DNA of 45,151 nt, from positions 1 through 45,151 of the forward strand of contig JALCCG010000175.1 in the NCBI GenBank assembly GCA_023212695.1, read 5' to 3'. The first letter of the stretch is position 1. Each line of letters starts with the position of its first letter. Position numbers and translations under genes: made by a program. Below, piece by piece: positions 1,919 to 44,144 of this stretch. The stretch comes from Sporisorium sorghi (taxonomy: Eukaryota > Basidiomycota > Ustilaginomycetes > Ustilaginales > Ustilaginaceae). Below the pieces are notes generated by a model. The model did no database searches. It saw only the letters and a program-made list of their open reading frames with translations, and was not told the DNA's origin.

Positions 1919-2266
1919 CTACTCTGACTCGATACAAAGCTGTACGAATTGTTGCTGAAGTAACTCTTGCATACGAGAGGATGAGAGGCCGAGTTCCTCT
2001 CGTGCCTGTGCAGCAGCAAAAGGATGAATTTTTGAACCCACTGTTGTTTTATAAAAATTCAATGCTTGTTTGGCTTTTTTTCTTGCCGGCATACTCATGC
2101 TGATACTTGCTCTACAAAGTAAGCTTAGTTCAGCAATAGCAGTGGCTGTCTCCTCTTTAGATAATTTGTTCCATATGATATATTCCTGGCGATCCTCTAT
2201 TCCGGCTATTTTCACCTTATCTTGAATTTGTGGATATGGAGAAAGATCAATTGCTTTCTTCATCAT
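1919..2266 (-). CDS. Hypothetical protein downstream of the topoisomerase-FtsK gene
   Basis: 115 residues, mostly helical and charged, with no family I recognise. The second half has a run of small and basic residues (SMSMPARKKAKQ) and an all-helical C-terminus (EELGLSSSRMQELLQQQ) that could be a small DNA-binding or coiled segment, but no clear helix-turn-helix. AGGAGG lies four bases before the first of two adjacent ATG codons. It follows the topoisomerase-FtsK gene on the same strand after 140 bases and is probably cotranscribed with it. Confidence 0.65.
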   Translation of the reverse strand: MMKKAIDLSPYPQIQDKVKIAGIEDRQEYIIWNKLSKEETATAIAELSLLCRASISMSMPARKKAKQALNFYKTTVGSKIHPFAAAQAREELGLSSSRMQELLQQQFVQLCIESE

Positions 2267-2406: not shown

Positions 2407-5400
2407 TCATCTATACTTTTGTTTGATATAGTTTACAACTTTCTCAATTTCTTCGTCACTGACATAGGCAGAGACTAGACGTTGCTTAGAGCCGCCATTT
2501 GGTTTGAAGAACATATCCCCTTTACCAAGTAAATCCTCCGCACCAGACTCATCCAGGATGACAAGTGAGTCATTGCCTGCTGCAACAGCAAAAGCAATTC
2601 TTACCGGAAGGTTACTTTTGATATTAGGTGAAAGGAATTGTTTGGTTGGTCGTTGTGTAGCCACTACCATATGAATTCCGGATGCGCGTGCAAGTTGGGA
2701 TAGGCGCTGGATAAAATGCTCAACGTCTCCTGCAGCTGTCATCATGAGATCAGCAAGTTCATCTATGATAAGGACGATATAAGGCATCTTTTTAGCATAT
2801 GGATCCCGCTTCAATAATTGCTCATTATAAGCTTGAATGTTTCTGACTCCTGCTTTTTGGAACAGGTCATATCTTTTGTCCATCTCGTCGGTTAATTTGT
2901 TCAAAGCCCTGACTGCTTGTTGTGGATCGGTAATAATCGGTGTAAATAAGTGAGGGAGTCCGGAATAGACTATAAGTTCAACGCGCTTAGGATCTATCAT
3001 GACAAACTTAAGTTCGTCCGGATCCAATCCGTAAAGCAAACTTACTATTAAAGAGTTTATCCCAACAGACTTGCCTGATCCCGTAGTCCCAGCAATTAGC
3101 ACATGTGGCATATCTGCTAAATCGGCTATAACCGGCTTCCCTACCATATCGACGCCGATTGGGAAGCTAAGAGCATTACGTTTAATTAAAAAATCCCGAT
3201 TTTCAAGCATACTTCTAAGGTTTACTACATACGGATTTTTGTTTGGTACTTCAATCCCTACTAAATTAGTGCCTGGAATAGGAGAGTACAGTGTTATTTT
3301 TTCTGCCTGAAGAGCTGCTTTTAAGTTATCCAAGTAACGCCTATAGTTGGAGATGTTGATTTTTAGTGTTTCTGGTAGTAGCTCATAACGAATCACTTTG
3401 GGGCCATATGAAACATTTTTTACTTTTGCAGGCATTTTAATTACTGCTGTTACATTCTCTATCCATTCAATTTCCTCCTTATTTCCTTCAACTGGTTGCT
3501 GATTGGACTGAACTCTAAGCAACGAGGTTGGCAGCTTGAGCGTTTTTGGTTCAGGTCGTTTAAACTCAATTTCCCCACCTTCTTTCAAAACCAGAGCGGC
3601 ATTGAAATATTCCTCAGAGTTTCTCCGCTTGAACCCTTCCTTTATGATGGTTTCACCCTTGTTCAAAAGAGCTTGAATATCTTCCTTAGAAATCTCCACT
3701 CCTAGAATCATCTTACTGATTGTAAACTTACACTGGGTGTCTTTATAAGCGCTACATCCATAGAATTTACCCTTATCAACAACAAGAGCTGTATGGCATT
3801 TTGGACAGTGACCTAGATCATGCATATTTAATGATGGGCGCTGATAACCAGGTGTTTCACGTTGTTCAGGGCCATTATTATTCTCGCCACTCATCTGTAA
3901 TGGTACTCTATTTTCATGTCCAGTGTTATAATTGGTAACTCTCGTTTCTTCCTGCATATGCAGCTTGTTGTCTTGAATGCCAGCTGAAGGAGGATATGCC
4001 CCTCTATGATCTTCATTTAGATTAGCCAAAGGTGATACAGAAGGAGTTGTTTTTTGAGATGCGACATCATCTACTCTTTTTTCAGCTTGTCCTTGTTCAT
4101 ACATCGCAGGCTTTCGGCTAAGCTGGGGAAATATATTTTGATCTTGTTCGAAATTTGAACTGTTTTCTCGATGCTGGGTTTGATTCTGGTTATTCACAGC
4201 GCCAGAAGGTGCTTGACTCTCTAATGCTCTTGCGTTGCTTGGAAATCGTTTTTGAAACTCTCTACTATCAATAAGAATCTGTCTTGGCTCAGATCCTCTG
4301 TATGGTCCGATAATCCCTTCTTGTTCCATTCGATCAATGAGCTTAGCACATTCGGTATATCCGCGCATTATTCGACGCTGCAGGATTGAAACCGATGCTT
4401 GCTTTGCCCGTAGTACTTCCCAGATTGCTCTAGGATACAACTCGTCATCTAGTTGAATGAAAGCCTGTGTTGATGGTATCGGAGTTGTATTTGGTTGTTG
4501 TATTGCTGATTTCTTATCTTGTGTAGTTGGCCGAGTTTGGGCGTGCACGGATTCCCTAGCCGTCATAGGAGAACTTTTCTCTATGGAAGACCGCGATCCG
4601 ATCGTTGTTTTTGCACGGTCTAGTTGCTGCTGGGATGTAGGATGTGCTGGCGTTGCATTGGGAGCTTGTATGCCCATGTGCTGAACAGATATATACCCTT
4701 CTTGAACCAATTGAAGCGTCAATTTCTTAGCTTCTTCTATAAAGTCCGTATGCTTCTTGGTACCCGCTCCAACTTCCCGAAGTTTCATCTCCCATTGGCC
4801 AGTCATTTCAGCACTGGCAAGTATTGATGCTCCAATAGCTTGTATTAATGTTCTTCCTTTGGAAGTGGTATAGACCATATTTTTTTTGATTTCAATGTAT
4901 TTCTGTTCCTTTAATCGACCAATCATGCCGGAGCGGGTCGCCTCGGTACCAAGACCATCAGTACTTTGTAAAATTTTTTCTAGTTCCTGATTCTCCAGAC
5001 TTTTCCCAGCACCTTTCATAAGAGCAATTAAGTCGCCCTCTGTATACCGTTTGGGTGGTTTAGTTTTTCCTTCCTTAGAAGTTACAGAAGCGGCAACACC
5101 TTGTTCACCGATCGATAATACAGGAAGTGCCTGCTCAACAGGTTCAAGTTCATTCTCTTCATTCTCCCCGTGTGGGTATAGCACGCGCCGCCATCCTTCT
5201 TGAACGGTCACTTTCCCTTTTGAAATAAATGAAAATTTAGCATCTACATACGTAATGATCGTTGTGTGATCGAAGATTGCTTTGTTATAGTGAGCTGCAA
5301 TTAAGGATCGAGCAATCAAATCATATACATTTCGCTCACGATCATCGAGATCCGATAAGTTTGGAACATTCTCAGTTGGAATAATGGCATAATGGTCCGA

Positions 5401-6522
5401 TACTTTCTCCGGATTCACATACCTTTTATTCCCGATTAAGCTCTGGAGGGGTGCAGGTAAAATGGATCCATAAGGATGTAGTGCTCTCAGTTTTTCAAGA
5501 ATAGATGGAAATGTTATTGCTTCATCTTCCGTTACATATTGAGAATCTGATCTAGGATAACTTACAATCCCTCTCTCATAGAGCCCTTGAACAATTTTGA
5601 GGACATCCTGGGGAGAGTACCGGTATCTTTTGTTAACCAGAGTTTGTAACGAAGACAGGTTATGCAGTAGCGGAGGATTATACTGCTTTTGTTCTTTTTT
5701 GATATCACGAATATCCACCACTTTCCCTTGACATGCCTGGACAAGATCTAGGGAAAGCTTTTGAACTGGTAGATTCACCATAGCATCTTTATACCACTGG
5801 CCTTGATATCGTTTTCCATTCACCTCAAAATCCGCAATGACTTGCCAAAAGGGTTTTGATACAAAGCTCTCTATGGCTATTTCTCTCTCCACAATAAGTG
5901 AAAGAAGCGGTGTTTGTACACGTCCTGTAGAAAAGCTACCTTCAGATACGGATCCTTTACTTTTGAGTAAAATCGTATATAAGCGGGAGGTGTTCATCCC
6001 CACTAGCCAATCAGCACAGGATCTACTGTAAGCCTCATAATAGAGATTTTTCTTCGAGGATTCAGGAAGCAAGTTGTGAAATGCATGTTCAACTGCTGTC
6101 TTCGCTAATGATGATGTCCAAAGGCGTTTAACAGGCTTCTTATTGCCTGCTTGCCGCAGAATCAATCCAGCAATAAGTTCCCCTTCTCTACCGGGGTCAG
6201 TAGCAATAATCACTTCCGATACTTTCGGATCTGTTACAAATCTTTTGATAATGCTAAATAATCCGGCTTTTGAACGGTCAACTCTATGTTTGAATTGATT
6301 CGGAATAATAGGAAGATCATGGAGATTCCATTTTTCATATTTTGAGTCATATTCCTCAGGTTCGGCTAAGCCAATTAAGTGGCCGGATGCCCACACGATT
6401 ACGCCGCCCTTAGGAAAGACTGAACATGGTTTTAATTCAATATATCCTTGAGCACTTTTATGTGGGAAAGGTTTCGCTAATTCTTCTGCCTGTATCTTTT
6501 TTTCTGCGAGCACGACCTTCAC
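2407..6522 (-). CDS. DNA topoisomerase III (type IA) fused to FtsK/SpoIIIE translocase
   Basis: A 1371-residue fusion of two complete DNA motors. Residues 1-600 are a type IA topoisomerase of the TopB kind: Toprim with Glu7 and ATDPGREGE (107-115), catalytic Tyr322 in SYPRSDS, and GLGTEATRSGMIGRLKE near 523-538. Residues 690-752 match the FtsK gamma winged helix (DELYPRAIWEVL, then SVSILQRR, then MEQEGIIGP). A low-complexity linker leads to a four-Cys zinc ribbon (Cys906, 909, 923, 931) and a topoisomerase C-terminal repeat (EISKEDIQALL). Residues 1020-1371 are an FtsK motor with Walker A AGTTGSGKS (1144-1152) and Walker B LIIDE (1251-1255). The gamma module is thus upstream of the motor, not at the C-terminus. 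The GTG at 6522 is preferred because AGGAGG sits eight bases before it; a longer form would read through the leader. Likely role: translocation coupled to decatenation of the element's DNA. Confidence 0.93.
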   Translation of the reverse strand: MKVVLAEKKIQAEELAKPFPHKSAQGYIELKPCSVFPKGGVIVWASGHLIGLAEPEEYDSKYEKWNLHDLPIIPNQFKHRVDRSKAGLFSIIKRFVTDPKVSEVIIATDPGREGELIAGLILRQAGNKKPVKRLWTSSLAKTAVEHAFHNLLPESSKKNLYYEAYSRSCADWLVGMNTSRLYTILLKSKGSVSEGSFSTGRVQTPLLSLIVEREIAIESFVSKPFWQVIADFEVNGKRYQGQWYKDAMVNLPVQKLSLDLVQACQGKVVDIRDIKKEQKQYNPPLLHNLSSLQTLVNKRYRYSPQDVLKIVQGLYERGIVSYPRSDSQYVTEDEAITFPSILEKLRALHPYGSILPAPLQSLIGNKRYVNPEKVSDHYAIIPTENVPNLSDLDDRERNVYDLIARSLIAAHYNKAIFDHTTIITYVDAKFSFISKGKVTVQEGWRRVLYPHGENEENELEPVEQALPVLSIGEQGVAASVTSKEGKTKPPKRYTEGDLIALMKGAGKSLENQELEKILQSTDGLGTEATRSGMIGRLKEQKYIEIKKNMVYTTSKGRTLIQAIGASILASAEMTGQWEMKLREVGAGTKKHTDFIEEAKKLTLQLVQEGYISVQHMGIQAPNATPAHPTSQQQLDRAKTTIGSRSSIEKSSPMTARESVHAQTRPTTQDKKSAIQQPNTTPIPSTQAFIQLDDELYPRAIWEVLRAKQASVSILQRRIMRGYTECAKLIDRMEQEGIIGPYRGSEPRQILIDSREFQKRFPSNARALESQAPSGAVNNQNQTQHRENSSNFEQDQNIFPQLSRKPAMYEQGQAEKRVDDVASQKTTPSVSPLANLNEDHRGAYPPSAGIQDNKLHMQEETRVTNYNTGHENRVPLQMSGENNNGPEQRETPGYQRPSLNMHDLGHCPKCHTALVVDKGKFYGCSAYKDTQCKFTISKMILGVEISKEDIQALLNKGETIIKEGFKRRNSEEYFNAALVLKEGGEIEFKRPEPKTLKLPTSLLRVQSNQQPVEGNKEEIEWIENVTAVIKMPAKVKNVSYGPKVIRYELLPETLKINISNYRRYLDNLKAALQAEKITLYSPIPGTNLVGIEVPNKNPYVVNLRSMLENRDFLIKRNALSFPIGVDMVGKPVIADLADMPHVLIAGTTGSGKSVGINSLIVSLLYGLDPDELKFVMIDPKRVELIVYSGLPHLFTPIITDPQQAVRALNKLTDEMDKRYDLFQKAGVRNIQAYNEQLLKRDPYAKKMPYIVLIIDELADLMMTAAGDVEHFIQRLSQLARASGIHMVVATQRPTKQFLSPNIKSNLPVRIAFAVAAGNDSLVILDESGAEDLLGKGDMFFKPNGGSKQRLVSAYVSDEEIEKVVNYIKQKYR

Positions 6523-6814: not shown

Positions 6815-8362
6815 CTACTTCGACAAGTCTTCTTCATTGTTAAATTCAATTCCGAAACTAAAAGGATTTTGTATGGTCCCGGGTTGCTTGTTCATAAAAT
6901 AAGCTAATGCGATATCTTCTGTTACCAGAAGAGCTGGTTCCACTAAACTAGTGTTTTCTACTGGTAAACAAGATTTAATCACTGGATTTCTCGTCGATTT
7001 AATACCTAGTATGCGATCAGGATTTTTTTCATCATAAAACAATTCACTGTCGAATTGTATTGTCGCGATGTATTGACCTTCAGGCAAACTAATAAGAAAG
7101 GGACATTTTATTTTGGATTGCATCAATTTCAAATCGGAAGTGTCTTCAGATCCAAGAATAAACCCAATGAAAGAGTCTTTTTGGTCTAGCAACAGGCTCT
7201 TGATGAACATGTAAGTCAATACTGTGTACATATTATTAAGTTCATTCAATTGAACATGAGGTTCCAATGAAAGTGAGTCATATATTTCAGGAAGATATCT
7301 GACAATGCCCGCTATGCGAAGAAGTTCTGGCCAGGTTTCAACAGGTATCCCATCAATAGTATCTCCCTCTTGAATTACTCTTAGTAGATTGATGAGTTCA
7401 GGATATTCAAACAAATTATCAGTATCCTTCGCAGTAAAAATCACCTCAGTAAAATGATAATATTGATTGTCTTGTCCCTTCCTTTTTCGCGATAACGTCA
7501 AGCTCATACCACTCGGATGATAGTATGATTTCTCATCTCCGAATCCCCTGATTTCGAAAATACAGGTGGCGATTTTTTTGCCGTTGCGTTTTAATTGCAA
7601 CCGGCGCATATCATAGTGTAAAGGAGCTATAAGAGAAGTAAGGTCAGCTATATCGTTCAGCTGCTCCGAAACATTTTTGAATGCTCCCAGGGGTAAGGAC
7701 AGTTTATTGATATCTTGTGCAAGAAAGGATTCTCGCACAATTGGAAATAATTTATGGGTTTTGTCAAAGAGATCTTCTGCTTCGTTTGCTTCCACAATGG
7801 CAACACTACCATCTTCCGTTTGATGGATTTCTAGTTTTACTTCTCCAATTAGTTTTTGAAGCCCTAACCGTGCTTTCAGCAAGCCCAATTTGTTTTGATA
7901 CGATCTTTTTTTAACAATTGATAATTGTTCGATAAAATGATCTGGATCTTTGCTCATTTTTGATGGGTCTAGCCGAAAGGTTTTTTTATTGGTAATTAAA
8001 CGTTGATGAAACTCGACAAGTAACTCTTTGTCAAAAAAACGATGATAAACATCTTCTTTATTGACATCAACCAAAATAAATACAAGTGGCTGAGCTGATT
8101 TCAGTGTGAATTCCATATCGGATTTTTCTAACCTGGCATACGGTTTCTGAAGTTCAGAACTTTTCACGTTAACCAAGAGAAATTCAGGAAGCATTGGCCG
8201 GACACTTCCTATCGGATTACCTCCTATCTGGCAAGAAAAATCTATACCGTAGTCGGACTCAAGCTTATTTGGAGTTAACTTAAGTGTACGCTGTGAATAG
8301 AGCCTATAAATGGTTTCTCCGAGCTCACCAATTTCCTGGCTTCTATTTTTATATTTGGTCAT
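6815..8362 (-). CDS. DUF4365-like (PD-(D/E)xK nuclease-fold) protein
   Basis: 515 residues. The first 160 or so resemble DUF4365: IGELGE near 11-16, DYGIDF near 38-43 and the strand FLLVNVKSS at 61-69, followed by a strand LVFILVDV. This fits a PD-(D/E)xK-like core, with Asn where the family often has Gln (VNVK rather than VQVK). The remaining 350 residues are of unknown fold. DUF4365 proteins are often found in anti-phage islands; a defence role is inferred from that and from the QueC-like neighbour. The start at 8362 is chosen because GGAGG lies five bases upstream. It is transcribed away from the QueC-like gene across a 574-base gap and ends at its own terminator. Confidence 0.6.
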   Translation of the reverse strand: MTKYKNRSQEIGELGETIYRLYSQRTLKLTPNKLESDYGIDFSCQIGGNPIGSVRPMLPEFLLVNVKSSELQKPYARLEKSDMEFTLKSAQPLVFILVDVNKEDVYHRFFDKELLVEFHQRLITNKKTFRLDPSKMSKDPDHFIEQLSIVKKRSYQNKLGLLKARLGLQKLIGEVKLEIHQTEDGSVAIVEANEAEDLFDKTHKLFPIVRESFLAQDINKLSLPLGAFKNVSEQLNDIADLTSLIAPLHYDMRRLQLKRNGKKIATCIFEIRGFGDEKSYYHPSGMSLTLSRKRKGQDNQYYHFTEVIFTAKDTDNLFEYPELINLLRVIQEGDTIDGIPVETWPELLRIAGIVRYLPEIYDSLSLEPHVQLNELNNMYTVLTYMFIKSLLLDQKDSFIGFILGSEDTSDLKLMQSKIKCPFLISLPEGQYIATIQFDSELFYDEKNPDRILGIKSTRNPVIKSCLPVENTSLVEPALLVTEDIALAYFMNKQPGTIQNPFSFGIEFNNEEDLSK

Positions 8363-8936
8363 TTTCTCCTCCACAACAATAAATTCATATGTTCGATAAT
8401 GGAATAACATATATAGCCGGTTTATATAAATTATATATTATGAACTATATCCTTTATTTCTTATATTAACAACGCTAGTACATATCCATATACTTAATAT
8501 CTACGATCTTCACCCCTACTGACAATGAGGTCTTAATCCTAAATTTTATATAGATGAAGCTTGGTTCCTCCAATGCATTCTACTCTCGCGCTAGATATTA
8601 TATATAGCAAAACCGACCTATTCAGTTTGTTGACTCATTTTCTCCCTACACACCTTGAAATAGACGGCAGGGAAAATCGGTTTCCGACCTTCCTTTACCC
8701 CCAATGTGAAATGAACTCAAAAAGAACATCTCATAGATAAATAAGTTCTTAAAGTCTCAGCATGTACTGTTCAATGACCAAAGCACACATCAATAATTTG
8801 GGGGGCCATATTAAACTCAAATGGAACGTGATGCGTATGCCTCAAATAATGTATTTTTCTCATTACATCCGTTTAATTTGCATGAATAATAATTCAAAAA
8901 TTTACTCATATTAAGAAAAAAATGGAGTGATGTATC
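8363..8936. other. Intergenic region between divergent DUF4365 and QueC-like genes
   Basis: 574 bases, strongly AT-rich near both genes. It should hold both promoters, but I could not identify a convincing -35/-10 pair. A short hairpin (TCGG, TTT, CCGA) lies near 8676. I do not see a preQ1 riboswitch pattern before the QueC-like gene. One 22-codon frame near 8821 lacks a well-placed ribosome binding site and was not called. Confidence 0.5.
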
Positions 8937-9566
8937 ATGAAGAAAAAGGCAATTGTGATGGTATCAGGAGGACCTGATTCCTCTACGCTTTTGTACCATT
9001 TAAAAACGGAGTTTGAACTTGTTCCTGTTTATTTTGACTATGGTCAGAATGCATCGGATTATGAAATAGTTGCTGCGAGGAAAATTTCTGAAGAATTAAA
9101 CCTTCATCTTGAGATAATTGATATCTCCTCCCTGAGAAGAACCTTTTTAGGATTAAACAGACGAGATAATATATCACTATCCATTAATGGCAATTGTCCG
9201 GTTGCATTACTTTCAATTGCAGGACTTTATGCAACAGAACGAAATATAGACACACTTTTATTAGGTGTTCACAAAGAGGATTTTCCAGAAATAAAAAACA
9301 TAACCTCAACCTTAAACAAATATTCTGAAGTTTTAGAAGAATTCAATAACAAGCATGTTGAGGTATCTGCCCCTTTCATCACTAAAAAGAAGAAAGAGGT
9401 CTTTGAATTAGCAAAACAATTAAATGTTCCATTTGAGTTAACTCGTAGTTGCGAAAGAAATAGCTATATCCACTGTGGTGAGTGTAACCCGTGTAAAGAG
9501 AGGAAACATTCATTTCTTGAAGCTGAAATACAAGATCCAACTAAATATCTGGCACAACATTGTTAA
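8937..9566 (+). CDS. QueC-like 7-cyano-7-deazaguanine synthase family protein
   Basis: 209 residues, close to the usual QueC length. QueC converts 7-carboxy-7-deazaguanine to preQ0 using ATP and ammonia. The PP-loop SGGPDSS is at residues 10-16, and four zinc-type cysteines are at 172, 180, 183 and 186 (CGECNPC). The segment that is usually PGRN in QueC here reads NGNCPVALLSIAGLYA (85-100), so the substrate pocket may differ. No queD, queE or queF lies nearby, which argues against ordinary queuosine synthesis. QueC homologues also occur in defence systems (QatC of QatABCD; Cap9 of type IV CBASS), but no partners of those systems are here. ATGGAGTG precedes the ATG. A terminator follows at 9630. 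Confidence 0.8.
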   Translation: MKKKAIVMVSGGPDSSTLLYHLKTEFELVPVYFDYGQNASDYEIVAARKISEELNLHLEIIDISSLRRTFLGLNRRDNISLSINGNCPVALLSIAGLYATERNIDTLLLGVHKEDFPEIKNITSTLNKYSEVLEEFNNKHVEVSAPFITKKKKEVFELAKQLNVPFELTRSCERNSYIHCGECNPCKERKHSFLEAEIQDPTKYLAQHC

Positions 9567-18788: not shown

Positions 18789-19892
18789 TTACATCACTGA
18801 AAATGACTCATTAAACAAGTAATCATCTAAATTACTGAAGTCTAGTTGATCATATCGAATTCTTTTGTTCATGAACATTACCCCATGAAATTCGTATAAT
18901 TTAGCAAAGGAACTATAGTTACCTGTCGATTGTAAAGGTTTTCTAGTTAAATGCTTATATTCTGCAAAATTGATGGGATCGGTAAGACGAATCTTCTCAG
19001 CAAATTCAGAGTATTCTTTACCCGGATTATTTTTCATGGGTACCGCCAAGTTAATACAGAACGGATAATTACTGGAATGACTATCAACTCGATTTGAGTT
19101 GTATGCGACTCCATCAATGTTAAAGTCGGCCAGACACTGCATCACTAATTGAGATATAATGTACTCACTTCGAAATGTTCGATTTTCCTCATTGATCCTA
19201 AAAGATGTGGCAATGACAAGAGGGAACAGTGCAATCATACTACCCAGAGGGTTTATGAGTTCATCGGAATTCGAGTACCCATTTAACATCGCTTGAGGAA
19301 TGGCTAGATTCAAAACTTTCATGTCATTTGGCATGTCAAATGCGGCCACATTAAACTCACTGTCTGCAGGTTTACGCAATTCCAACCAGCAAACATAGGA
19401 AGTTAAGCCAAAGTACATGCTGGGTACACCGGCTATACTGAATCGCTGCGTAGATACGTTCCCCCTGTTACTGAAAGGTATATGTAAAAATCCGCTTTTG
19501 TTGAAGTTGTTTACTCCTAATCTTGCTCGATACATACGAATTGGATGTGTCGCGACCCCACTCCATTCATTTATATTCTTATTTACTCTTGTCAATCCCC
19601 GAAAAGCTGTTGAATCATCTAACCGAGCAACAATAAATGGATCATGAGAACAATAAACCAAAATCTTAAGTATATTTTTTTTTGCGTATGTAAGATTTGC
19701 ATCGTAATAGTAATTGATGGCCTCCAATATAAATTGAGTATTCCTCGCTGCAAGTTGATATGTATCCGGAGCCACATACTGCTGGATTTCAGACAAATAC
19801 TGTTTAAGCACTGTTTCGAGCTTTGTGTAATATTCCGAATCCTTCTGGATGATGAACGGTAATTCAAAATTATTAAGCTCCAATTTGCTCAT
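18789..19892 (-). CDS. RES-domain protein
   Basis: 367 residues. Residues about 118-290 carry the RES pattern: MYRAR, then a segment with NRGNVSTQRFSIAGVPSMYF, then WLELRKP, then a later Ser-containing strand. RES domains in RES-Xre toxin-antitoxin pairs degrade NAD+. Here the domain is flanked by a 110-residue helical N-terminal region and a C-terminal extension, so the protein is about twice the size of the minimal toxins. No Xre-family antitoxin lies next to it. Longer RES proteins of this kind are often found in accessory or defence regions; that function is inferred. GGGGGG lies seven bases before the ATG. Confidence 0.7.
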   Translation of the reverse strand: MSKLELNNFELPFIIQKDSEYYTKLETVLKQYLSEIQQYVAPDTYQLAARNTQFILEAINYYYDANLTYAKKNILKILVYCSHDPFIVARLDDSTAFRGLTRVNKNINEWSGVATHPIRMYRARLGVNNFNKSGFLHIPFSNRGNVSTQRFSIAGVPSMYFGLTSYVCWLELRKPADSEFNVAAFDMPNDMKVLNLAIPQAMLNGYSNSDELINPLGSMIALFPLVIATSFRINEENRTFRSEYIISQLVMQCLADFNIDGVAYNSNRVDSHSSNYPFCINLAVPMKNNPGKEYSEFAEKIRLTDPINFAEYKHLTRKPLQSTGNYSSFAKLYEFHGVMFMNKRIRYDQLDFSNLDDYLFNESFSVM

Positions 19893-28076: not shown

Positions 28077-28760
28077 CTATCTGGTCGTAGAGATAACCGT
28101 TATAACCGAATATATAACAAGAGAACAAGCCACTAAATATGATAAAAATGCGATGGCCGTATAGATCCAAAAAAGCAGACGACTATGTGACCATATAAGC
28201 CTTCCATCGGTAAATCCGAAAGTCGTATTCGTTAAAGCCTGTACATCCTTATTTCGAATTTCCATGGCTTCTTTGCGCTTTCCTTCCCAAAGTTTTATGC
28301 ATGGGAAGAAAAGCGTCATCATATTAGTACTCAGAACTAAAAACGATATTAAAAGAGTTACGTAATGGTGATTTTGCTCAAAGAGTGCTAGCCATATACC
28401 CATAATCATAAATACTATTCCTACCATACCTTCAGCTGCTGGTCCAGCAATTGCAAACAAGAGAAGTTTCCATTTTCTTGACCCAAAGTAAACATGGTTC
28501 CAAGGATATGCGAGACCTCTTGTTTGACGCAATTTTTTAGCCGGTCTTGAATATTTAATAACTGGGATACCACAGACTTTAAATGATTTTTCTCTAGAGC
28601 CATTGATATCACCTAATACGATTCCAGCACGGCTTTCCCTATAAACTAATTTCAGAATTAAATAATGACCCACTTCATGAAAGAAGGTCGAAATGATTCG
28701 AAAACAGGATATTAACGAAGCAGAAACTAGAAAAAAAACCAATATGATAAATTGGCTCAT
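28077..28760 (-). CDS. Membrane-embedded M50-like metalloprotease
   Basis: 227 residues. HEVGH (28-32) lies in the first membrane helix, as in site-2-protease-type enzymes. Further hydrophobic segments are near 95-120, 128-150 and 195-222. A segment AIAGPAAEGMVG (about 105-116) is where M50 proteases carry their second conserved region, though the classic NPDG is not evident. It could cleave a membrane-bound regulator or a small membrane peptide. It follows the 548-residue zincin gene by 75 bases on the same strand. Confidence 0.65.
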   Translation of the reverse strand: MSQFIILVFFLVSASLISCFRIISTFFHEVGHYLILKLVYRESRAGIVLGDINGSREKSFKVCGIPVIKYSRPAKKLRQTRGLAYPWNHVYFGSRKWKLLLFAIAGPAAEGMVGIVFMIMGIWLALFEQNHHYVTLLISFLVLSTNMMTLFFPCIKLWEGKRKEAMEIRNKDVQALTNTTFGFTDGRLIWSHSRLLFWIYTAIAFLSYLVACSLVIYSVITVISTTR

Positions 28761-28835
28761 TGTATTTAATCCTCTCCATTCATTGTGTACACCTTATTAT
28801 CGGAAATAATGCTCAGTATAATAAGATGAAAATCA

Positions 28836-30482
28836 TCAAAACAAGAGCAATTGTCCATTCTGAGCATGTAAATAACTCTGGACTTCAGTCTCTGGTGCAG
28901 TTACATCAGACTGTGAAATATGAAAAGAAAAACTCCTCTTCTCTTCACGAATGGGTTCACATTTTGAGAACAGATTATCAAAATAAGATCTAAGTTCATT
29001 CAGATATTCTCGGTCAGAAGGATAAATTGGTTGGTCGTAATCTTGCTTAAGAAAGGAGGATTCAATCCTTTTGCATTTTGCGAGGTATAATTCGAAAGAA
29101 CGTGCAAAAATCTCGGTAGGTTGAAGATAGTAATTCCGATTATATTTTGTTGTACCTCTCCATCTCTCTACAAATGGATCGTCTGCTGGTAATCTCGAAA
29201 TATTTTGGTCAACGATTTGCTCGTATAATTGAATAAGTCGCACAAAAGACATTTCCTCACTCAACATACATTTTTCATTCATGGTATGGTCTATCTGATG
29301 ACCAAGTTCATGCATAAAAGAGCTTGGATGTTCGATATCGATTATGGTAGCTCGATAAAATGCATAATGTAAGCCTGCAGCTCGATGTTTTCCCAATTTT
29401 CGGATACGGAAACTATAATCCTTTGCAAGTGGTATATAGACTTTCTTTTTGATTTCTTCAAATTCTTTTTCCAATGCATGGAATCTAATGAGATCCACAT
29501 CGTTATCAAGTTCCACTGTTCCATAACGAGTCAAAAATTTATTGCTTTTCATGACTGCCTTAACTTTTTGATTGATATGTTTCTTGTCTTGAAAGGACTT
29601 TGCATAAGTGGAATGTTCATCAATCATGCGTTTAGTCTTTTCCTGGACATAGTTCATTGTACTAATAAGGCGAGGAATTATTATCTTCTTACCTTGTGCG
29701 GTTTCCATAATATAAGGAACGCCATCATCATTCCTTGCTAAAGAGAACTCTTCATAGGAATAATAATTGCTTATTTCTGTTTCTTCTCCATCAACATAAG
29801 GAAGATTGTATTTTTCGATTTCATCTTTTACCTCTACCGCAAATAGATCATCACCCGGACGAACAACCTTTCCCCTACTAACCGATTCAGTTGAGTAGTA
29901 CTCGGCTATTTTATACCTAATGTAATCTTTTTGCTTAATCGAAAATTCACACAAAGTATTTAAAAAAATAATTTTAGATATTAATCGTAAGCAGTCTGCA
30001 AATAGAAAGTAACCGATTCGGTTCAAGTTTTCTTTCAATCCATACTTTCTTAAATGGTACTTTTCAGGTAATTCTTTATTCAAGAATGTGTACGCGATAT
30101 CCGTTTGATTGAGTTTTAAAGCCACTGGTAATGACGGTTCATATTGTTGGGGAACTTTATTAATCTTAGCAGCGCTGCAGAGGAGCCTCAAAATAGAATT
30201 TTCCTTCTCATTAGCAAATTCCTTCATAATTTCTACCTCAACCTTGTAAGGGCCGAACGAAATATCTTGGAGAAAGCTCAGTTTATCTTCAAGATTTTTC
30301 GCAAAAAACATGGCCTTTACTTTTCTTCTGATTGCCGATTCGCATTTCTTTCTTAAATCATGAACAGTATCCTCAGGGGAAACAGTAAATTTAGCTTCAG
30401 CAATTAAATCGGACAAACCATAATGTGCATACTGTTGTTTTAATACCTCTGCCTTTTTAAGTGTGACAATTCGTTCTTTCAT
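28836..30482 (-). CDS. Zincin-like metallopeptidase (polyvalent-protein type)
   Basis: 548 residues. HELGHQIDH (391-399) is a gluzincin-type zinc motif, with a downstream candidate third ligand Glu457 in QPTEIFARSFELYL. That C-terminal pair (zinc helix, then PTEIFAR-SFE-Y) is typical of the peptidase parts of phage and plasmid polyvalent proteins. The N-terminal 330 residues are helical and unknown. There is no signal peptide, so it acts in the cytoplasm or is delivered with DNA; delivery is inference. GGAGGG is six bases before the ATG. The gene stands behind the large leader structure at 30562-30641 and is followed by the M50-like protease gene. Confidence 0.65.
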   Translation of the reverse strand: MKERIVTLKKAEVLKQQYAHYGLSDLIAEAKFTVSPEDTVHDLRKKCESAIRRKVKAMFFAKNLEDKLSFLQDISFGPYKVEVEIMKEFANEKENSILRLLCSAAKINKVPQQYEPSLPVALKLNQTDIAYTFLNKELPEKYHLRKYGLKENLNRIGYFLFADCLRLISKIIFLNTLCEFSIKQKDYIRYKIAEYYSTESVSRGKVVRPGDDLFAVEVKDEIEKYNLPYVDGEETEISNYYSYEEFSLARNDDGVPYIMETAQGKKIIIPRLISTMNYVQEKTKRMIDEHSTYAKSFQDKKHINQKVKAVMKSNKFLTRYGTVELDNDVDLIRFHALEKEFEEIKKKVYIPLAKDYSFRIRKLGKHRAAGLHYAFYRATIIDIEHPSSFMHELGHQIDHTMNEKCMLSEEMSFVRLIQLYEQIVDQNISRLPADDPFVERWRGTTKYNRNYYLQPTEIFARSFELYLAKCKRIESSFLKQDYDQPIYPSDREYLNELRSYFDNLFSKCEPIREEKRSFSFHISQSDVTAPETEVQSYLHAQNGQLLLF

Positions 30483-37237: not shown

Positions 37238-37287
37238 GAGCACCACGAATCCGTCCGAGAGGACTTGATTCGTGGTGCTCTTTTCTA
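37238..37287 (+). terminator. Leader attenuator of the HD-GYP gene
   Basis: A perfect 14-pair stem GAGCACCACGAATC / GATTCGTGGTGCTC (37238-37251 with 37267-37280), with an inner GTCC-GAGA-GGAC hairpin, followed by TTTTCTATT. AAGGAG and the start codon follow at once. The preceding leader TACATGTGAACATTGAGTGG nearly matches that of the divergent winged-helix gene. Confidence 0.8.
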
Positions 37288-37295
37288 TTAAGGAG

Positions 37296-38135
37296 ATGAT
37301 GCGGCACTTGGTTCTTAATAATCGTGAGGTGTATGTACTACACTTAATTCTGTTTGTTTTATTAATTATAGGTATACTCATAGGAGATTTTAATTTAAAT
37401 TTTTTTGAAATTTTGTTACTTTTAACTGGCTATTCTTTGGTATCCCTTTATATAACCAGACTCATCCTCAACAAGCGATCGCTTAATTTAGTGAAATCAA
37501 GCAAATATACAAATACACAATTAGCAAAATCTGCAGTTAATGCTCTCGTAACAATGGTTGAGCTGCGTGACAGTTATACAAGTAAGCACTCATCAAATGT
37601 TGCTGGCTATGCATATTCCGTAGCTAAGAGTATGCAGCTCCCTGATGATGTTTGTAGAGATATTTATATTGGATGCAAACTCCACGACCTAGGTAAAGTT
37701 TATGTACCTGATGATATATTAAAAAAGCCAGGTCGATTAACAGCAGAAGAGTTCGACATCGTGAAGGCACACCCAGAAAAGGGATATCAAGTTGTCTCTC
37801 AATTAGAAATTTTTGATGATACCTGCATACCCAACATTGTGTTATATCATCATGAAAGATTTGATGGAACTGGCTACCCCAAGGGACTTTTTAGAACAGA
37901 CATCCCCATTGAAGCAAGAATTGTAGCTATTTGCGATGCTTACGATGCTATGACTACTACACGAACTTATAGAAAGGCTATGCCACCTGAAGAAGCTATT
38001 CAAATCATTGAAGATAACAAAGGTTCTCAATTCGACCCGATTATTGCGGAGCACTTTGTTAGATGCATACGTGAAGAAGAGATTAACGAAGTAGATGCTC
38101 TCAATCTTTACAAAACAAATCAAAGGACCTCTTAG
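37296..38135 (+). CDS. Membrane HD-GYP domain protein (c-di-GMP phosphodiesterase)
   Basis: 279 residues: two N-terminal membrane helices (VLHLILFVLLIIGILIG and FEILLLLTGYSLVSLYI), then an HD-GYP domain with HDLGK and HHERFDGTGYP; both metal-site signatures are intact. HD-GYP enzymes hydrolyse c-di-GMP to GMP. Start: ATG at 37296 or 37299, just after AAGGAG; an upstream GTG would lie inside the leader hairpin. A GGDEF enzyme gene lies 5 kb away with a related leader. A terminator overlaps the stop codon. Confidence 0.9.
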   Translation: MMRHLVLNNREVYVLHLILFVLLIIGILIGDFNLNFFEILLLLTGYSLVSLYITRLILNKRSLNLVKSSKYTNTQLAKSAVNALVTMVELRDSYTSKHSSNVAGYAYSVAKSMQLPDDVCRDIYIGCKLHDLGKVYVPDDILKKPGRLTAEEFDIVKAHPEKGYQVVSQLEIFDDTCIPNIVLYHHERFDGTGYPKGLFRTDIPIEARIVAICDAYDAMTTTRTYRKAMPPEEAIQIIEDNKGSQFDPIIAEHFVRCIREEEINEVDALNLYKTNQRTS

Positions 38136-38334: not shown

Positions 38335-39427
38335 TACACCAACAATCGAAGTCCTTCTTGCTCTATATTGATGGCAGCGTTTTGGTCACGATTATGGTGT
38401 ACGCCACATTTTGGACATGTCCACTGTCGTAAATTTAGGTTTTTTACATCTTTATTTCGATATCCACAGGCAGGAGTGGAGCAAAGTTGGCTGGAGGGGA
38501 ATTGTTTCCCAACAATAGAGAGCGTTCTTCCGTACCATTCCGCCTTATACTCCAGCATCGTCCGAAACATAGACCATGAAGCATCTGCAATGGATTTTGC
38601 CAATTTGTGGTTTTTGATCATATTTTCGACTTGCAAGTCTTCCAAACAGATTACTTGGTTTTAGCGGATCAGCTTGGTTGACAATTTATGTAGAAAATCA
38701 TTTCGTGTATTGGCGATCTTTTCATGTAGCTTAGCCACTCTGATTCGTGCTTTGTTACGGTTTTTACTGCCTTTCTGTCTGCGAGATTGAGTCTGTTGCC
38801 ACTTCGCCAATTGTTTTTCAAGCTTGCGATAGTATTTTGGATTCTCCACTTTCTCACCTGAAGAGAGAATAGCGAAATCCTTGATACCAAGGTCAATTCC
38901 TACTGTCTGATTTACTTCTGGTAGTGACTGAACCTCTGTTTCACATAATAAGATACAAAGAATTTGCCTGAAGAATGACGTCTGATCGTAGCTGAAAGGA
39001 TGCGCCCTTTCACTTCTCTGGACTTTGCGAATAGAGCCCAGCCAAGCTTAGGAAGTTTGATGCGATTCCCTTCTACTTTGATGTTCATTTTACAAGTATA
39101 GGACTGTTTTGGATTCTTCTTGCTTTTGAATTTTGGATAGCCTTTTTTCTCTTTAAAAAACTTTTTGTATGAGGAATCCAAATCCTTCAATGTGGATTGC
39201 AGAGCAGTAGAATCTACTTCTTTCAACCATTCAATTTCTTTTTTCAGTTGAGTTAACATAGCCGAACAGTCGTTGTAATTCAGCGTCGTTTTCTTTTCTT
39301 GTTCGTAAGCATCTTTTCGTTTCGCAAGAAAGTGATTGAAGACAAAGCGAGTGCATCCGATGGTCTTGCCAATGAGTGTCGCTTGTTCTTTGTTTGGATA
39401 TAGACCAAATTTGTACGCTATGTGCAT
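38334..39427 (-). pseudogene. tnpB: TnpB (RNA-guided nuclease) with frameshift and nonsense codon
   Basis: About 365 codons, the normal TnpB length. The N-terminal part (MHIAYKFGLYPNKEQ) runs to about 38945, where a one-base deletion shifts the frame after FFVS; the true reading continues with a RuvC-type segment QTVGIDLGIKDFAI. A second lesion, TAA at 38661-38663, interrupts the same gene before [10 protein letters not shown]. The C-terminal part has the zinc finger ([15 protein letters not shown]) and [12 protein letters not shown] with the last RuvC Asp. So all three RuvC regions persist but the product cannot be made whole. Confidence 0.85.
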
Positions 39428-39441
39428 ACTCAATCACCCCT

Positions 39442-42992: not shown

Positions 42993-44078
42993 TTAATGTA
43001 AGAGTTCATCAAAAAACTCAGTTACTTGGTTTTTACCATTATTTTTAGAGTAATACATTGCTACATCTGACTTATGAATTAATTGATCAAAAGTAATAGA
43101 CGGAGTACTCTTAGCATATCCAATGCTAAGTGTTACCTCGCTTTCAGATTCCACCCTTTTCCTTATACTCTCGGTAATGGTTTTAATATCTATATCTCCT
43201 GAAGAAAGATTAACAAATGCTACAATTTCTTCTCCTCCGTATCTTGCAGCGATTCCAAAAAGTTGTACCTCTTCCCTAACAATTTCAGCAACTCGAATTA
43301 AGACTTCATCTCCCTTCTTGTGGCCCTGATTATCGTTTAGTTGTTTGAAATTATCTATATCACAGAAAATTGCGTACACTTCAGAGTCAATTTGTTCTAA
43401 TTCAGTTTGTAGCTGCTTTTGATAATGTCTTTTATTATAGAGTCCCGTCAACGGATCCGTTACAGAAGCTATATATGAATTCATAAGCAATTTCATAAGA
43501 CGATCTTGGAGCGTCATAAATATAGATAATAACAAGAGTGGAAGAGTTAGATTAGAAACAACCCATACAAACTCCAATCCTATATAGTGAGCTGCCAATG
43601 TGACGAGTGCATAAACAAGAAGCACAAGCAGAGAAATGGATAGTTTTATTATTGCTCGATAATTATTTCTGATTTGATATAAAAGGAAAAGTGTAAGAAT
43701 TACAAGAAACAAATTCGAAATGTAATAAACTTCTACTAGTTCAGTTAAGAAGTAAACTGTAATAAGCCCATACGAACTCAATTTCTCGTATCTTGTCTGT
43801 TCCCAATGTAACTGCGTTAACAAGATGAGAAAAAATACTATGCCCGCTAAAGTAAATCTTTGTGTAAAAGCAGAGATGTTTTGGTCAAACAAAAAAGAAG
43901 AAACCACTGAGCTGAATTGAAAAAAACTTAACACCATCGCACAAATTGTAAGATATCTATATCGGTTTCTTCGTGCTGAATAGAGCTGGTATGAGAGATA
44001 GAGAAGTATCAACGATATCGGAAAACAAATATAAGTAAGTACCCCCGAATTACTATTACCGAATAATTCAAGAACCAT
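42993..44078 (-). CDS. Membrane GGDEF protein (diguanylate cyclase)
   Basis: 361 residues. Six or seven N-terminal membrane helices (residues 5-195), then a GGDEF domain starting SVTDPLTGLYNKRHY. The signature is YGGEEI (GGEEF-like and compatible with activity), and FCDIDNFKQLND holds the metal-binding Asp. No RxxD inhibitory site is obvious. It would make c-di-GMP in response to an unknown membrane signal. The ATG at 44078 is preferred: GGAGGAAGGATC stands just before it, right after the leader hairpin. Its promoter shares a 14-mer with that of the winged-helix gene next to the HD-GYP gene. Confidence 0.9.
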   Translation of the reverse strand: MVLELFGNSNSGVLTYICFPISLILLYLSYQLYSARRNRYRYLTICAMVLSFFQFSSVVSSFLFDQNISAFTQRFTLAGIVFFLILLTQLHWEQTRYEKLSSYGLITVYFLTELVEVYYISNLFLVILTLFLLYQIRNNYRAIIKLSISLLVLLVYALVTLAAHYIGLEFVWVVSNLTLPLLLLSIFMTLQDRLMKLLMNSYIASVTDPLTGLYNKRHYQKQLQTELEQIDSEVYAIFCDIDNFKQLNDNQGHKKGDEVLIRVAEIVREEVQLFGIAARYGGEEIVAFVNLSSGDIDIKTITESIRKRVESESEVTLSIGYAKSTPSITFDQLIHKSDVAMYYSKNNGKNQVTEFFDELLH

Positions 44079-44092
44079 ATGATCCTTCCTCC

Positions 44093-44144
44093 AAAAAAAG
44101 AAGCACAACTTAACAGAGGTTCTCCCTCAGAAAAGTGGTGCTTC
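44093..44144 (-). terminator. Leader attenuator of the GGDEF gene
   Basis: On the minus strand GAAGCAC/GTGCTTC (44138-44144 with 44100-44106), inner ACTT/AAGT and AGG/CCT pairs, then seven T followed immediately by GGAGGAAGG and the ATG. The ribosome binding site is thus directly behind the terminator. Confidence 0.8.

What the first reader, a model, noticed from the sequence alone, without database searches (positions are those of the whole stretch)
2407..6522. Topoisomerase III fused to a complete FtsK motor, with the FtsK gamma module in the middle
One polypeptide carries an apparently active type IA topoisomerase (Tyr322, Toprim ATDPGREGE, zinc ribbon) and an apparently active FtsK translocase (Walker A and B intact). 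The gamma-like winged helix, normally at the FtsK C-terminus where it reads KOPS/SRS sequences, lies between topoisomerase and zinc ribbon, and the protein ends after the motor. I know of functional links between FtsK and topoisomerase IV, but not of this fusion as a described family. It may translocate along and decatenate element DNA at segregation or transfer.
Basis: partly seen in the sequence, partly recalled or inferred. Interest (0 to 1): 0.9.

Follow-up and report, generated by a model that had tools for sequence, protein, structure and literature searches.

The report
Topoisomerase III–FtsK fusion of megaplasmids
Some large plasmids of Paenibacillus and related bacteria carry one giant protein that joins a DNA-untangling enzyme to a DNA-pumping motor; it is usually annotated simply as topoisomerase and probably helps these plasmids separate after copying.

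Summary
Window 2407-6522 (minus) encodes one uninterrupted 1371-aa protein: Topo III, an FtsK gamma winged helix, a zinc ribbon with Toprim_Crpt, then FtsK alpha and motor domains. It is not an assembly join. I found 42 fusion clusters (22 with gamma, 20 without); Walker A is in 42 of 42, the tyrosine motif in 40, the other two being N-truncated. Trees of both halves fit a single fusion event; gamma changed several times.

The fusion belongs to one megaplasmid family: 4 complete plasmids of 367-543 kb, the same 4 records that hold its origin-side Replic_Relax protein at E<=1e-30. The same 9 of 394 genomes carry both genes. Two smaller XerS plasmids, one with the same secretion ATPase, lack it.

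Best reading: a soluble, SftA-like pump with its own topoisomerase that unlinks replicated megaplasmid sisters. Transfer is less likely but not excluded. There is no biochemistry, no gamma target motif was shown, and four literature searches showed no description in titles or abstract starts.

The parts
2407..6522 (-). Fusion CDS, GTG start, 1371 aa, stop included
   Evidence: homologues start at the same position
6112..6516 (-). Toprim domain, residues 3-137 (DPGREGE at 109-115)
   Evidence: Pfam PF01751
4738..6054 (-). Topoisom_bac, residues 157-595, catalytic Tyr322 at window 5557-5559
   Evidence: Pfam PF01131; Tyr in 34 of 34 aligned rows that cover it (36 rows)
4480..4650 (-). Disordered linker 1, about residues 625-681
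   Evidence: AlphaFold pLDDT under 50 at model residues 1-57
4270..4449 (-). FtsK_gamma winged helix, residues 692-751
   Evidence: PF09397 68.7 bits; matches PDB 2j5o and 2ve8; modelled mostly with pLDDT above 90
3838..4206 (-). Disordered linker 2, about residues 773-895
   Evidence: pLDDT under 50 at model residues 149-271
3718..3810 (-). Four-cysteine zinc ribbon, residues 905-935
   Evidence: Pfam match below cut-off; Cys 906, 909, 923, 931 invariant in 36 rows
3559..3732 (-). Toprim_Crpt repeat, residues 931-988
   Evidence: PF13342
3241..3504 (-). FtsK_alpha, residues 1007-1094
   Evidence: PF17854
2647..3219 (-). FtsK_SpoIIIE motor, residues 1102-1292; Walker A at window 3067-3090
   Evidence: PF01580; model matches PDB FtsK 6t8g and 6t8o, TMt 0.88
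1919..2266 (-). Small gene downstream (115 aa), conserved next to the fusion in pPPM1a and pYT9A and next to a standalone TopB in pAcN35; a candidate partner, not shown to belong
   Evidence: 59%, 59%, 36% identity

Best explanation
A megaplasmid-encoded, soluble DNA pump that carries its own topoisomerase. SHOWN by sequence: Topo III core and FtsK alpha/motor with intact signature motifs in one polypeptide, no membrane anchor detected, gamma flexibly tethered in the model, and strict co-occurrence with one megaplasmid replicon in the genomes tested. INFERRED from the families: the motor forms a hexameric ring round duplex DNA, so one ring would carry six Topo III modules; as it runs along newly replicated plasmid it pushes links and proteins ahead and brings Topo III to remaining single-stranded gaps, hemicatenanes or underwound duplex, where strand passage separates the sisters. 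Where present, gamma would set direction or contact a partner. The protein would thus act on megaplasmid DNA at the end of replication or before division, as soluble SftA does for the chromosome, with unlinking built in.
For: Domains and folds. Motifs kept: Walker A 42 of 42, Tyr motif 40 of 42. No 4TM Pfam domain (PF13491) on any of the 42 fusion clusters as listed; highest 19-residue hydropathy of the window protein 1.51. Replicon link: in 'plasmids' the pPPM1a Replic_Relax protein at E<=1e-30 is on 4 of 72,556 records, the same 4 where one place covers at least 80% of the fusion (which counts only its 5000 best records); it lies 4.6-12.6 kb from the GC-skew minimum in 4 of 4. In 394 genomes of one family the same 9 carry the fusion junction and this protein, none discordant, although some of the Rep-like proteins are only 28-32% identical; the two genes share a contig in 6 of 9. 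On the four fusion plasmids no other FtsK- or TopB-like gene was found (tblastn 1e-4). Plasmid size: fusion plasmids 367-543 kb; the two relatives without it 172 and 226 kb; a 628-kb relative has a separate TopB, a separate FtsK and a zinc-ribbon-FtsK protein. SftA localises to division sites and appears to lack a transmembrane domain (PMC4744071, passages).
Against: No experiment. Co-occurrence with a replicon may be shared descent, not function; the Rep protein was picked after seeing where it lies in pPPM1a, and the 1e-30 threshold matters, since weaker Rep relatives (E 1e-11, 5e-13) occur on plasmids without a full fusion. The VirB4-like ATPase is in 12 of 12 fusion genomes searched and was not counted over the 394. 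The window's host assembly also has a standalone FtsK and TopBs, so the fusion may be redundant. The stretch where I recall E. coli Topo III has its decatenation loop is about 8 residues shorter here. No target motif for gamma was found.
Confidence: 0.5

Rival explanations
1. Conjugative role: the fusion pumps plasmid DNA during transfer, or relaxes it for the type IV secretion system that these plasmids encode.
For: 12 of 12 fusion genomes searched carry the VirB4-like ATPase at 66-100% identity; the 4 fusion plasmids also carry the coupling-protein homologue. The fold search also lists the FtsK-like coupling protein TcpA.
Against: 37 plasmid records carry that ATPase (E<=1e-60), 15 of the 30 listed at 56% identity or more; 11 of those 15 are not among the four full-fusion records. 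pG5.M11b_1 has the ATPase (60%) and the coupling protein (47%) but no fusion, TopB or FtsK (tblastn 1e-3). In pPPM1a the fusion is about 113 kb from the coupling gene and about 144 kb from the secretion genes. No membrane domain. The four records are typed non-mobilizable by MOB-suite, which may only mean an unknown relaxase.
Confidence: 0.17
2. Reverse-gyrase-like machine: the motor makes positive supercoils ahead and negative ones behind, and the fused type IA enzyme removes only the negative ones, leaving net positive supercoiling or driving unlinking.
For: SpoIIIE is measured or predicted to make one supercoil per about 80-100 bp; the model predicts negative in the forespore and positive in the mother cell (PMC4728128, passages). 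Preference of type IA enzymes for negative supercoils is recalled.
Against: Reverse gyrase uses an SF2 helicase-like module, not a ring translocase (recalled); no direct evidence here.
Confidence: 0.13
3. The motor is mainly a tether or loader for Topo III at forks or termini; directional pumping and gamma matter little.
For: 20 of 42 clusters lack gamma, and the trees need at least 4 changes of gamma.
Against: Walker A is kept in 42 of 42, and Walker B Asp/Glu and the TQRP motif are invariant in 36 aligned rows, so the ATPase seems to be under selection.
Confidence: 0.15
4. Assembly or sequencing join of two genes, or a decayed gene.
For: None found.
Against: 42 clusters, complete plasmids, an identical copy in another genome, no stops inside the 9 family matches.
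Confidence: 0.01

Closest known systems
Topo III (TopB), NCBIfam PRK07726 / TIGR01056
   Same: Residues 1-673 above both cut-offs; E. coli Topo III is the best fold match of the gamma-less homologue P0033 (2o5c, TMt 0.86)
   Different: Carries a full FtsK alpha/motor and often a gamma domain; in the window protein the zinc ribbon is moved behind long linkers
FtsK/SpoIIIE and soluble SftA
   Same: Alpha, motor and gamma domains; motor fold TMt 0.88 to 6t8g; like SftA no membrane domain (SftA from PMC4744071, passages)
   Different: Gamma lies before the motor instead of after it; the N-terminal membrane domain is absent and the N-terminal part is Topo III
Reverse gyrase
   Same: ATP motor fused to a type IA topoisomerase
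   Different: SF2 helicase-like module (recalled) instead of an FtsK-type translocase; TIGR01054 77.2 bits against cut-off 471.7
Topo III-RecQ-HRDC fusions (10 of the 120 best TopB-region hits, by precomputed Pfam domains)
   Same: Another Topo III fused to a DNA motor in one protein
   Different: RecQ helicase instead of a dsDNA translocase

Membership tests
DNA topoisomerase III (TopB) | Family model above curated cut-off | tested here: met
   PRK07726 662.8 bits (597), TIGR01056 586.6 (515.75)
DNA topoisomerase III (TopB) | Catalytic Tyr and Toprim acidic motif | tested here: met
   Tyr322 in 34 of 34 covering rows; DPGREGE, Gly in the middle as in most listed TopB
DNA topoisomerase III (TopB) | Decatenation loop of E. 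coli type (position recalled) | tested here: inconclusive
   that stretch is about 8 residues shorter in the alignment to 2o19
DNA topoisomerase III (TopB) | Strand-passage activity | not testable with these tools
   needs purified protein
FtsK/SpoIIIE translocase | Alpha plus RecA-like motor with Walker A and B | tested here: met
   PF17854 53.6 (22.9), PF01580 208.8 (24); Walker A 42 of 42
FtsK/SpoIIIE translocase | C-terminal gamma domain | tested here: not met
   gamma present (68.7 bits) but at 692-751, before the motor
FtsK/SpoIIIE translocase | N-terminal 4TM membrane domain / full-length FtsK model | tested here: not met
   no PF13491; PRK10263 309.2 bits against cut-off 1566
FtsK/SpoIIIE translocase | Reads polar KOPS/SRS | tested here: inconclusive
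Reverse gyrase | SF2 helicase-like domain; family model | tested here: not met
   TIGR01054 77.2 bits against 471.7; no SF2 helicase Pfam at E<=1
Plasmid transfer protein TraB | Family model above cut-off | tested here: not met
   NF041214 59 bits against 800

The most novel reading that the evidence does not exclude
A new class of topological machine: a hexameric dsDNA translocase with a Topo III on every subunit, which couples ATP-driven translocation to strand passage (reverse-gyrase-like net positive supercoiling, or active sweeping and removal of sister links) and is dedicated to unlinking very large plasmids.
Probability: 0.25. Interest if true: 0.88.

Novelty: new variant of a known kind. 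Interest (0 to 1): 0.72.

Why it matters
How DNA translocases and topoisomerases cooperate to finish replicon separation is known mainly from separate partners (FtsK with Topo IV, FtsK with XerCD; recalled, with references seen). A natural fusion of a dsDNA pump with a decatenating enzyme suggests that the two act at the same place, and offers one protein in which the coupling can be measured. It also marks a megaplasmid family, and it is hidden in databases mostly under the name 'DNA topoisomerase 3'.

Tried and rejected
Assembly join: rejected. XerS partner: XerS lies at the GC-skew maximum in 5 of the 7 complete plasmids examined, but two of those five have no fusion (pAZOPL1, pG5.M11b_1) and a third only a topoisomerase-less relative (pAcN35); the two gamma-less fusion plasmids gave no full-length XerS hit. 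XerS is on 520 plasmid records. So it is a general megaplasmid trait, not evidence for the fusion's role. Gamma with XerS: same contig or record in 5 of 7 gamma-bearing fusion genomes or plasmids and in 1 of 6 gamma-less ones; a seventh gamma-less genome, G001, could not be scored because the contig number of its fusion was not given (several are drafts, and pPPM1a and pYT9A share a backbone): a weak trend only. dif-like inverted repeats beside xerS: none shared that I could see. SRS: GAGAAGGG (letters recalled) is 9 against 2 on the leading strand of pPPM1a but ranks 25 of 56 among its own permutations; under synonymous-codon shuffling its z is 1.7 and 1.8 on the two gamma-bearing fusion plasmids and 0.6-1.2 on the other four, suggestive at most. 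The heptamer GAAGAAG (recalled as the Lactococcus motif; the review PMC5357621, passages, says only A-rich heptamers) ranks 1-2 of 35 by skew on pPPM1a, pYT9A and pAcN35, but its shuffle z is 0.2-2.0 over six plasmids, so coding explains most of it. Viral contigs: one FtsK-like hit, no fusion; phage records: none covering 80% or more. For the motor half the free tree puts the Rossellomorea protein among the fusions; the AU test does not reject the fusions alone as one clade (p 0.07). I read that protein as a loss of the topoisomerase part. Both trees are quick ones with long branches.
Full report
WHAT IS THERE. The minus-strand frame 2407-6522 encodes 1371 aa from a GTG start. Pfam gives Toprim, Topoisom_bac, FtsK_gamma, Toprim_Crpt, FtsK_alpha and FtsK_SpoIIIE in that order; the zinc ribbon just before Toprim_Crpt is weak as a model match, but its four cysteines are invariant. 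NCBIfam places residues 1-673 in Topo III above two curated cut-offs, while the full-length FtsK and reverse-gyrase models stay far below theirs. PDB sequence and fold searches agree: E. coli Topo III for the N-terminal part (by sequence for the window protein; by fold for the gamma-less homologue P0033, TMt 0.86), and FtsK for the motor (TMt 0.88). In the AlphaFold model of residues 625-1371 (36-row alignment, mean pLDDT 76) gamma is a confident winged helix between two disordered stretches, and the part from zinc ribbon to motor is well folded. In P0033 a short disordered linker (617-651) separates topoisomerase from zinc ribbon and motor; pTM 0.56 does not fix their relative placement.

A REAL FAMILY. 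Three protein searches list 42 fusion clusters, the window's own included: 22 with the gamma Pfam domain, 20 without. Each search listed only its best 120, so this is a lower bound. Walker A is in 42 of 42; the catalytic Tyr motif in 40 of 42, the other two being N-truncated fragments. Names given by sources are topoisomerase 3/III or 'DNA translocase FtsK'; organisms, where named, are mostly Paenibacillus, once Ammoniphilus. The topoisomerase halves of 36 fusions (34 proteins of alignment A1 and L022, L023; two short ones dropped) lie on one side of a branch against 12 standalone TopB (SH-aLRT 94); the motor halves are separated from 46 standalone FtsK at 100. One fusion event is the simplest reading. 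In the motor tree the earliest-branching fusions (P0031, then P0032 and P0033) lack gamma, and gamma needs at least 4 changes in both trees, so gamma looks like a later, repeatedly changed insertion in the linker. Unusual copies: a Rossellomorea 628-kb plasmid has the zinc-ribbon-FtsK part without the topoisomerase, and in p-YT9A a group II intron with its ltrA gene splits the gene after residue 116.

WHERE IT LIVES. tblastn over 72,556 plasmid records (counts describe the 5000 best) shows 4 with at least 80% of the protein in one place: pPPM1a (367 kb), p-YT9A (392 kb), pART37 (543 kb), pY5S7-1 (375 kb). The window is collinear with pPPM1a: of 50 window ORFs tested (of 62 listed; overlapping ones dropped) 22 have tblastn hits on it, 20 of them in one run at 115-148 kb in the same order. 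The window's contig belongs to a 23-Mb assembly of 469 contigs. An identical stretch lies in the 6.1-Mb genome G183, on a contig that also carries a XerS 72% identical to that of pPPM1a. With the junction profile (E<=1e-30) 9 of 394 genomes of one family matched, 6 of 398 drawn from the class (4 of them with long fusion frames, the centre included), and 1 of 398 from the phylum, the centre itself. The centre, G002, was chosen because it carries a fusion.

LINK TO ONE REPLICON. In pPPM1a a Replic_Relax protein (PF13814) and a ParM-like gene sit near the GC-skew minimum. That protein at E<=1e-30 is on 4 plasmid records, the four fusion plasmids, 4.6-12.6 kb from the skew minimum in each. In the 394 genomes the nine with it are the nine with the fusion; no genome is discordant (nominal 1/C(394,9) = 1.7e-18, not corrected for kinship or for my picking this gene after looking at pPPM1a). 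Weaker Rep relatives (E 1e-11 and 5e-13) exist on plasmids without a full fusion, so the link is to a subfamily. ParM is not the link: pART37 and pY5S7-1 had no ParM hit (tblastn 1e-4).

TRANSFER OR SEGREGATION. The VirB4-like ATPase is in 12 of 12 fusion genomes searched, so it too looks core to this plasmid family; it was not counted over the 394. But 37 plasmid records carry it, and the related 172-kb pG5.M11b_1 has the ATPase, coupling protein, XerS and weak Rep and ParM relatives but no fusion, TopB or FtsK. The 226-kb XerS plasmid pAZOPL1 also has none; it lacks this ATPase type. The fusion-bearing plasmids are larger (367-543 kb), and the 628-kb Rossellomorea plasmid has separate TopB and FtsK genes. 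This favours a need linked to replicating or separating a large replicon. Seven plasmids are few, and size is confounded with descent.

MECHANISM. Shown: two enzyme cores with intact motifs in one chain, without a detected membrane anchor. Inferred: ring-shaped hexamer, translocation, unlinking. [quoted passage not shown] The E. coli XerCD-dif-FtsK system can remove catenane links in vitro, and a reference titled with Topo III as cellular decatenase is cited (PMC3325230, passages). SpoIIIE supercoils DNA as it moves (PMC4728128, passages), which makes a reverse-gyrase-like coupling conceivable. Against strong decatenation: the stretch of the E. coli decatenation loop is shortened (loop position recalled). 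The gamma positions that I recall as KOPS contacts are Thr, Lys and Asp in the window protein, near to but not the same as in FtsK; no motif polarity clearly beyond composition and codons was found.

LITERATURE. Searches for Topo III + FtsK + fusion (9 papers), FtsK + topoisomerase + domain architecture + plasmid (13 papers), FtsK + topoisomerase IA + fused (none) and Paenibacillus + plasmid + topoisomerase + FtsK (2 papers) showed no description of this fusion; of these papers I saw titles and abstract starts, and of one (PMC3325230) passages. Passages of four papers in all were read. The library lacks most subscription journals, and the FtsK-HerA survey that I tried is not held, so 'undescribed' is provisional.

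VERDICT. Observation confirmed; interpretation partly supported and sharpened: a constant gene of a Paenibacillaceae-centred megaplasmid family, most likely serving sister-plasmid unlinking and movement.

Noticed in passing
pPPM1a 346541-347611; pYT9A 95674-96720; pAcN35 497537-498577; pAZOPL1 28145-29215; pG5.M11b_1 93105-94205: A XerS-type recombinase gene lies within about 400 bp of the GC-skew maximum (500-bp bins) in 5 of 7 complete megaplasmids examined, as if these plasmids had a chromosome-like terminus. pAcN35 has further XerS-like hits elsewhere; pART37 and pY5S7-1 gave no full-length XerS hit. In pYT9A the XerS is only 39% identical to that of pPPM1a although the four backbone genes compared are 95-100% identical.
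   Followed up: partly
p-YT9A (NZ_CP133769) 364438-367544: A group II intron with ltrA interrupts the fusion gene just after the conserved Toprim motif; whether it splices is unknown.
   Followed up: no
proteins P0264, P0270, P0271, P0285, P0291, P0292, P0293, P0303, P0305, P0308: Topo III fused to RecQ helicase and HRDC domains (1280-1335 aa), a second Topo III-motor fusion, by precomputed Pfam domains.
   Followed up: no
window 1919-2266 (-): 115-aa protein without a credible family, next to the fusion in pPPM1a/pYT9A and next to a standalone TopB in pAcN35: candidate topoisomerase partner.
   Followed up: partly
window 6815-8410 (-): Protein with a sub-threshold DUF4365 match beside the fusion; its homologue in pYT9A (66%) lies directly beside xerS.
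   Followed up: no
window 38912-39433 (-) and 37272-38135 (+), 42993-44108 (-): Short IS605 OrfB-type HTH fragment; HD-domain and GGDEF proteins with tblastn hits on all four fusion plasmids and on pAZOPL1.
   Followed up: no
window 8937-9566 (+), 18789-19892 (-): QueC-like and RES-domain genes; neither has a tblastn hit on pPPM1a.
   Followed up: no
G000 (23 Mb, 469 contigs): Assembly far larger than the Paenibacillaceae genomes listed (4.3-9.4 Mb) that contains this plasmid piece; an identical gene stretch is in the 6.1-Mb genome G183, so the assembly may be mixed.
   Followed up: no
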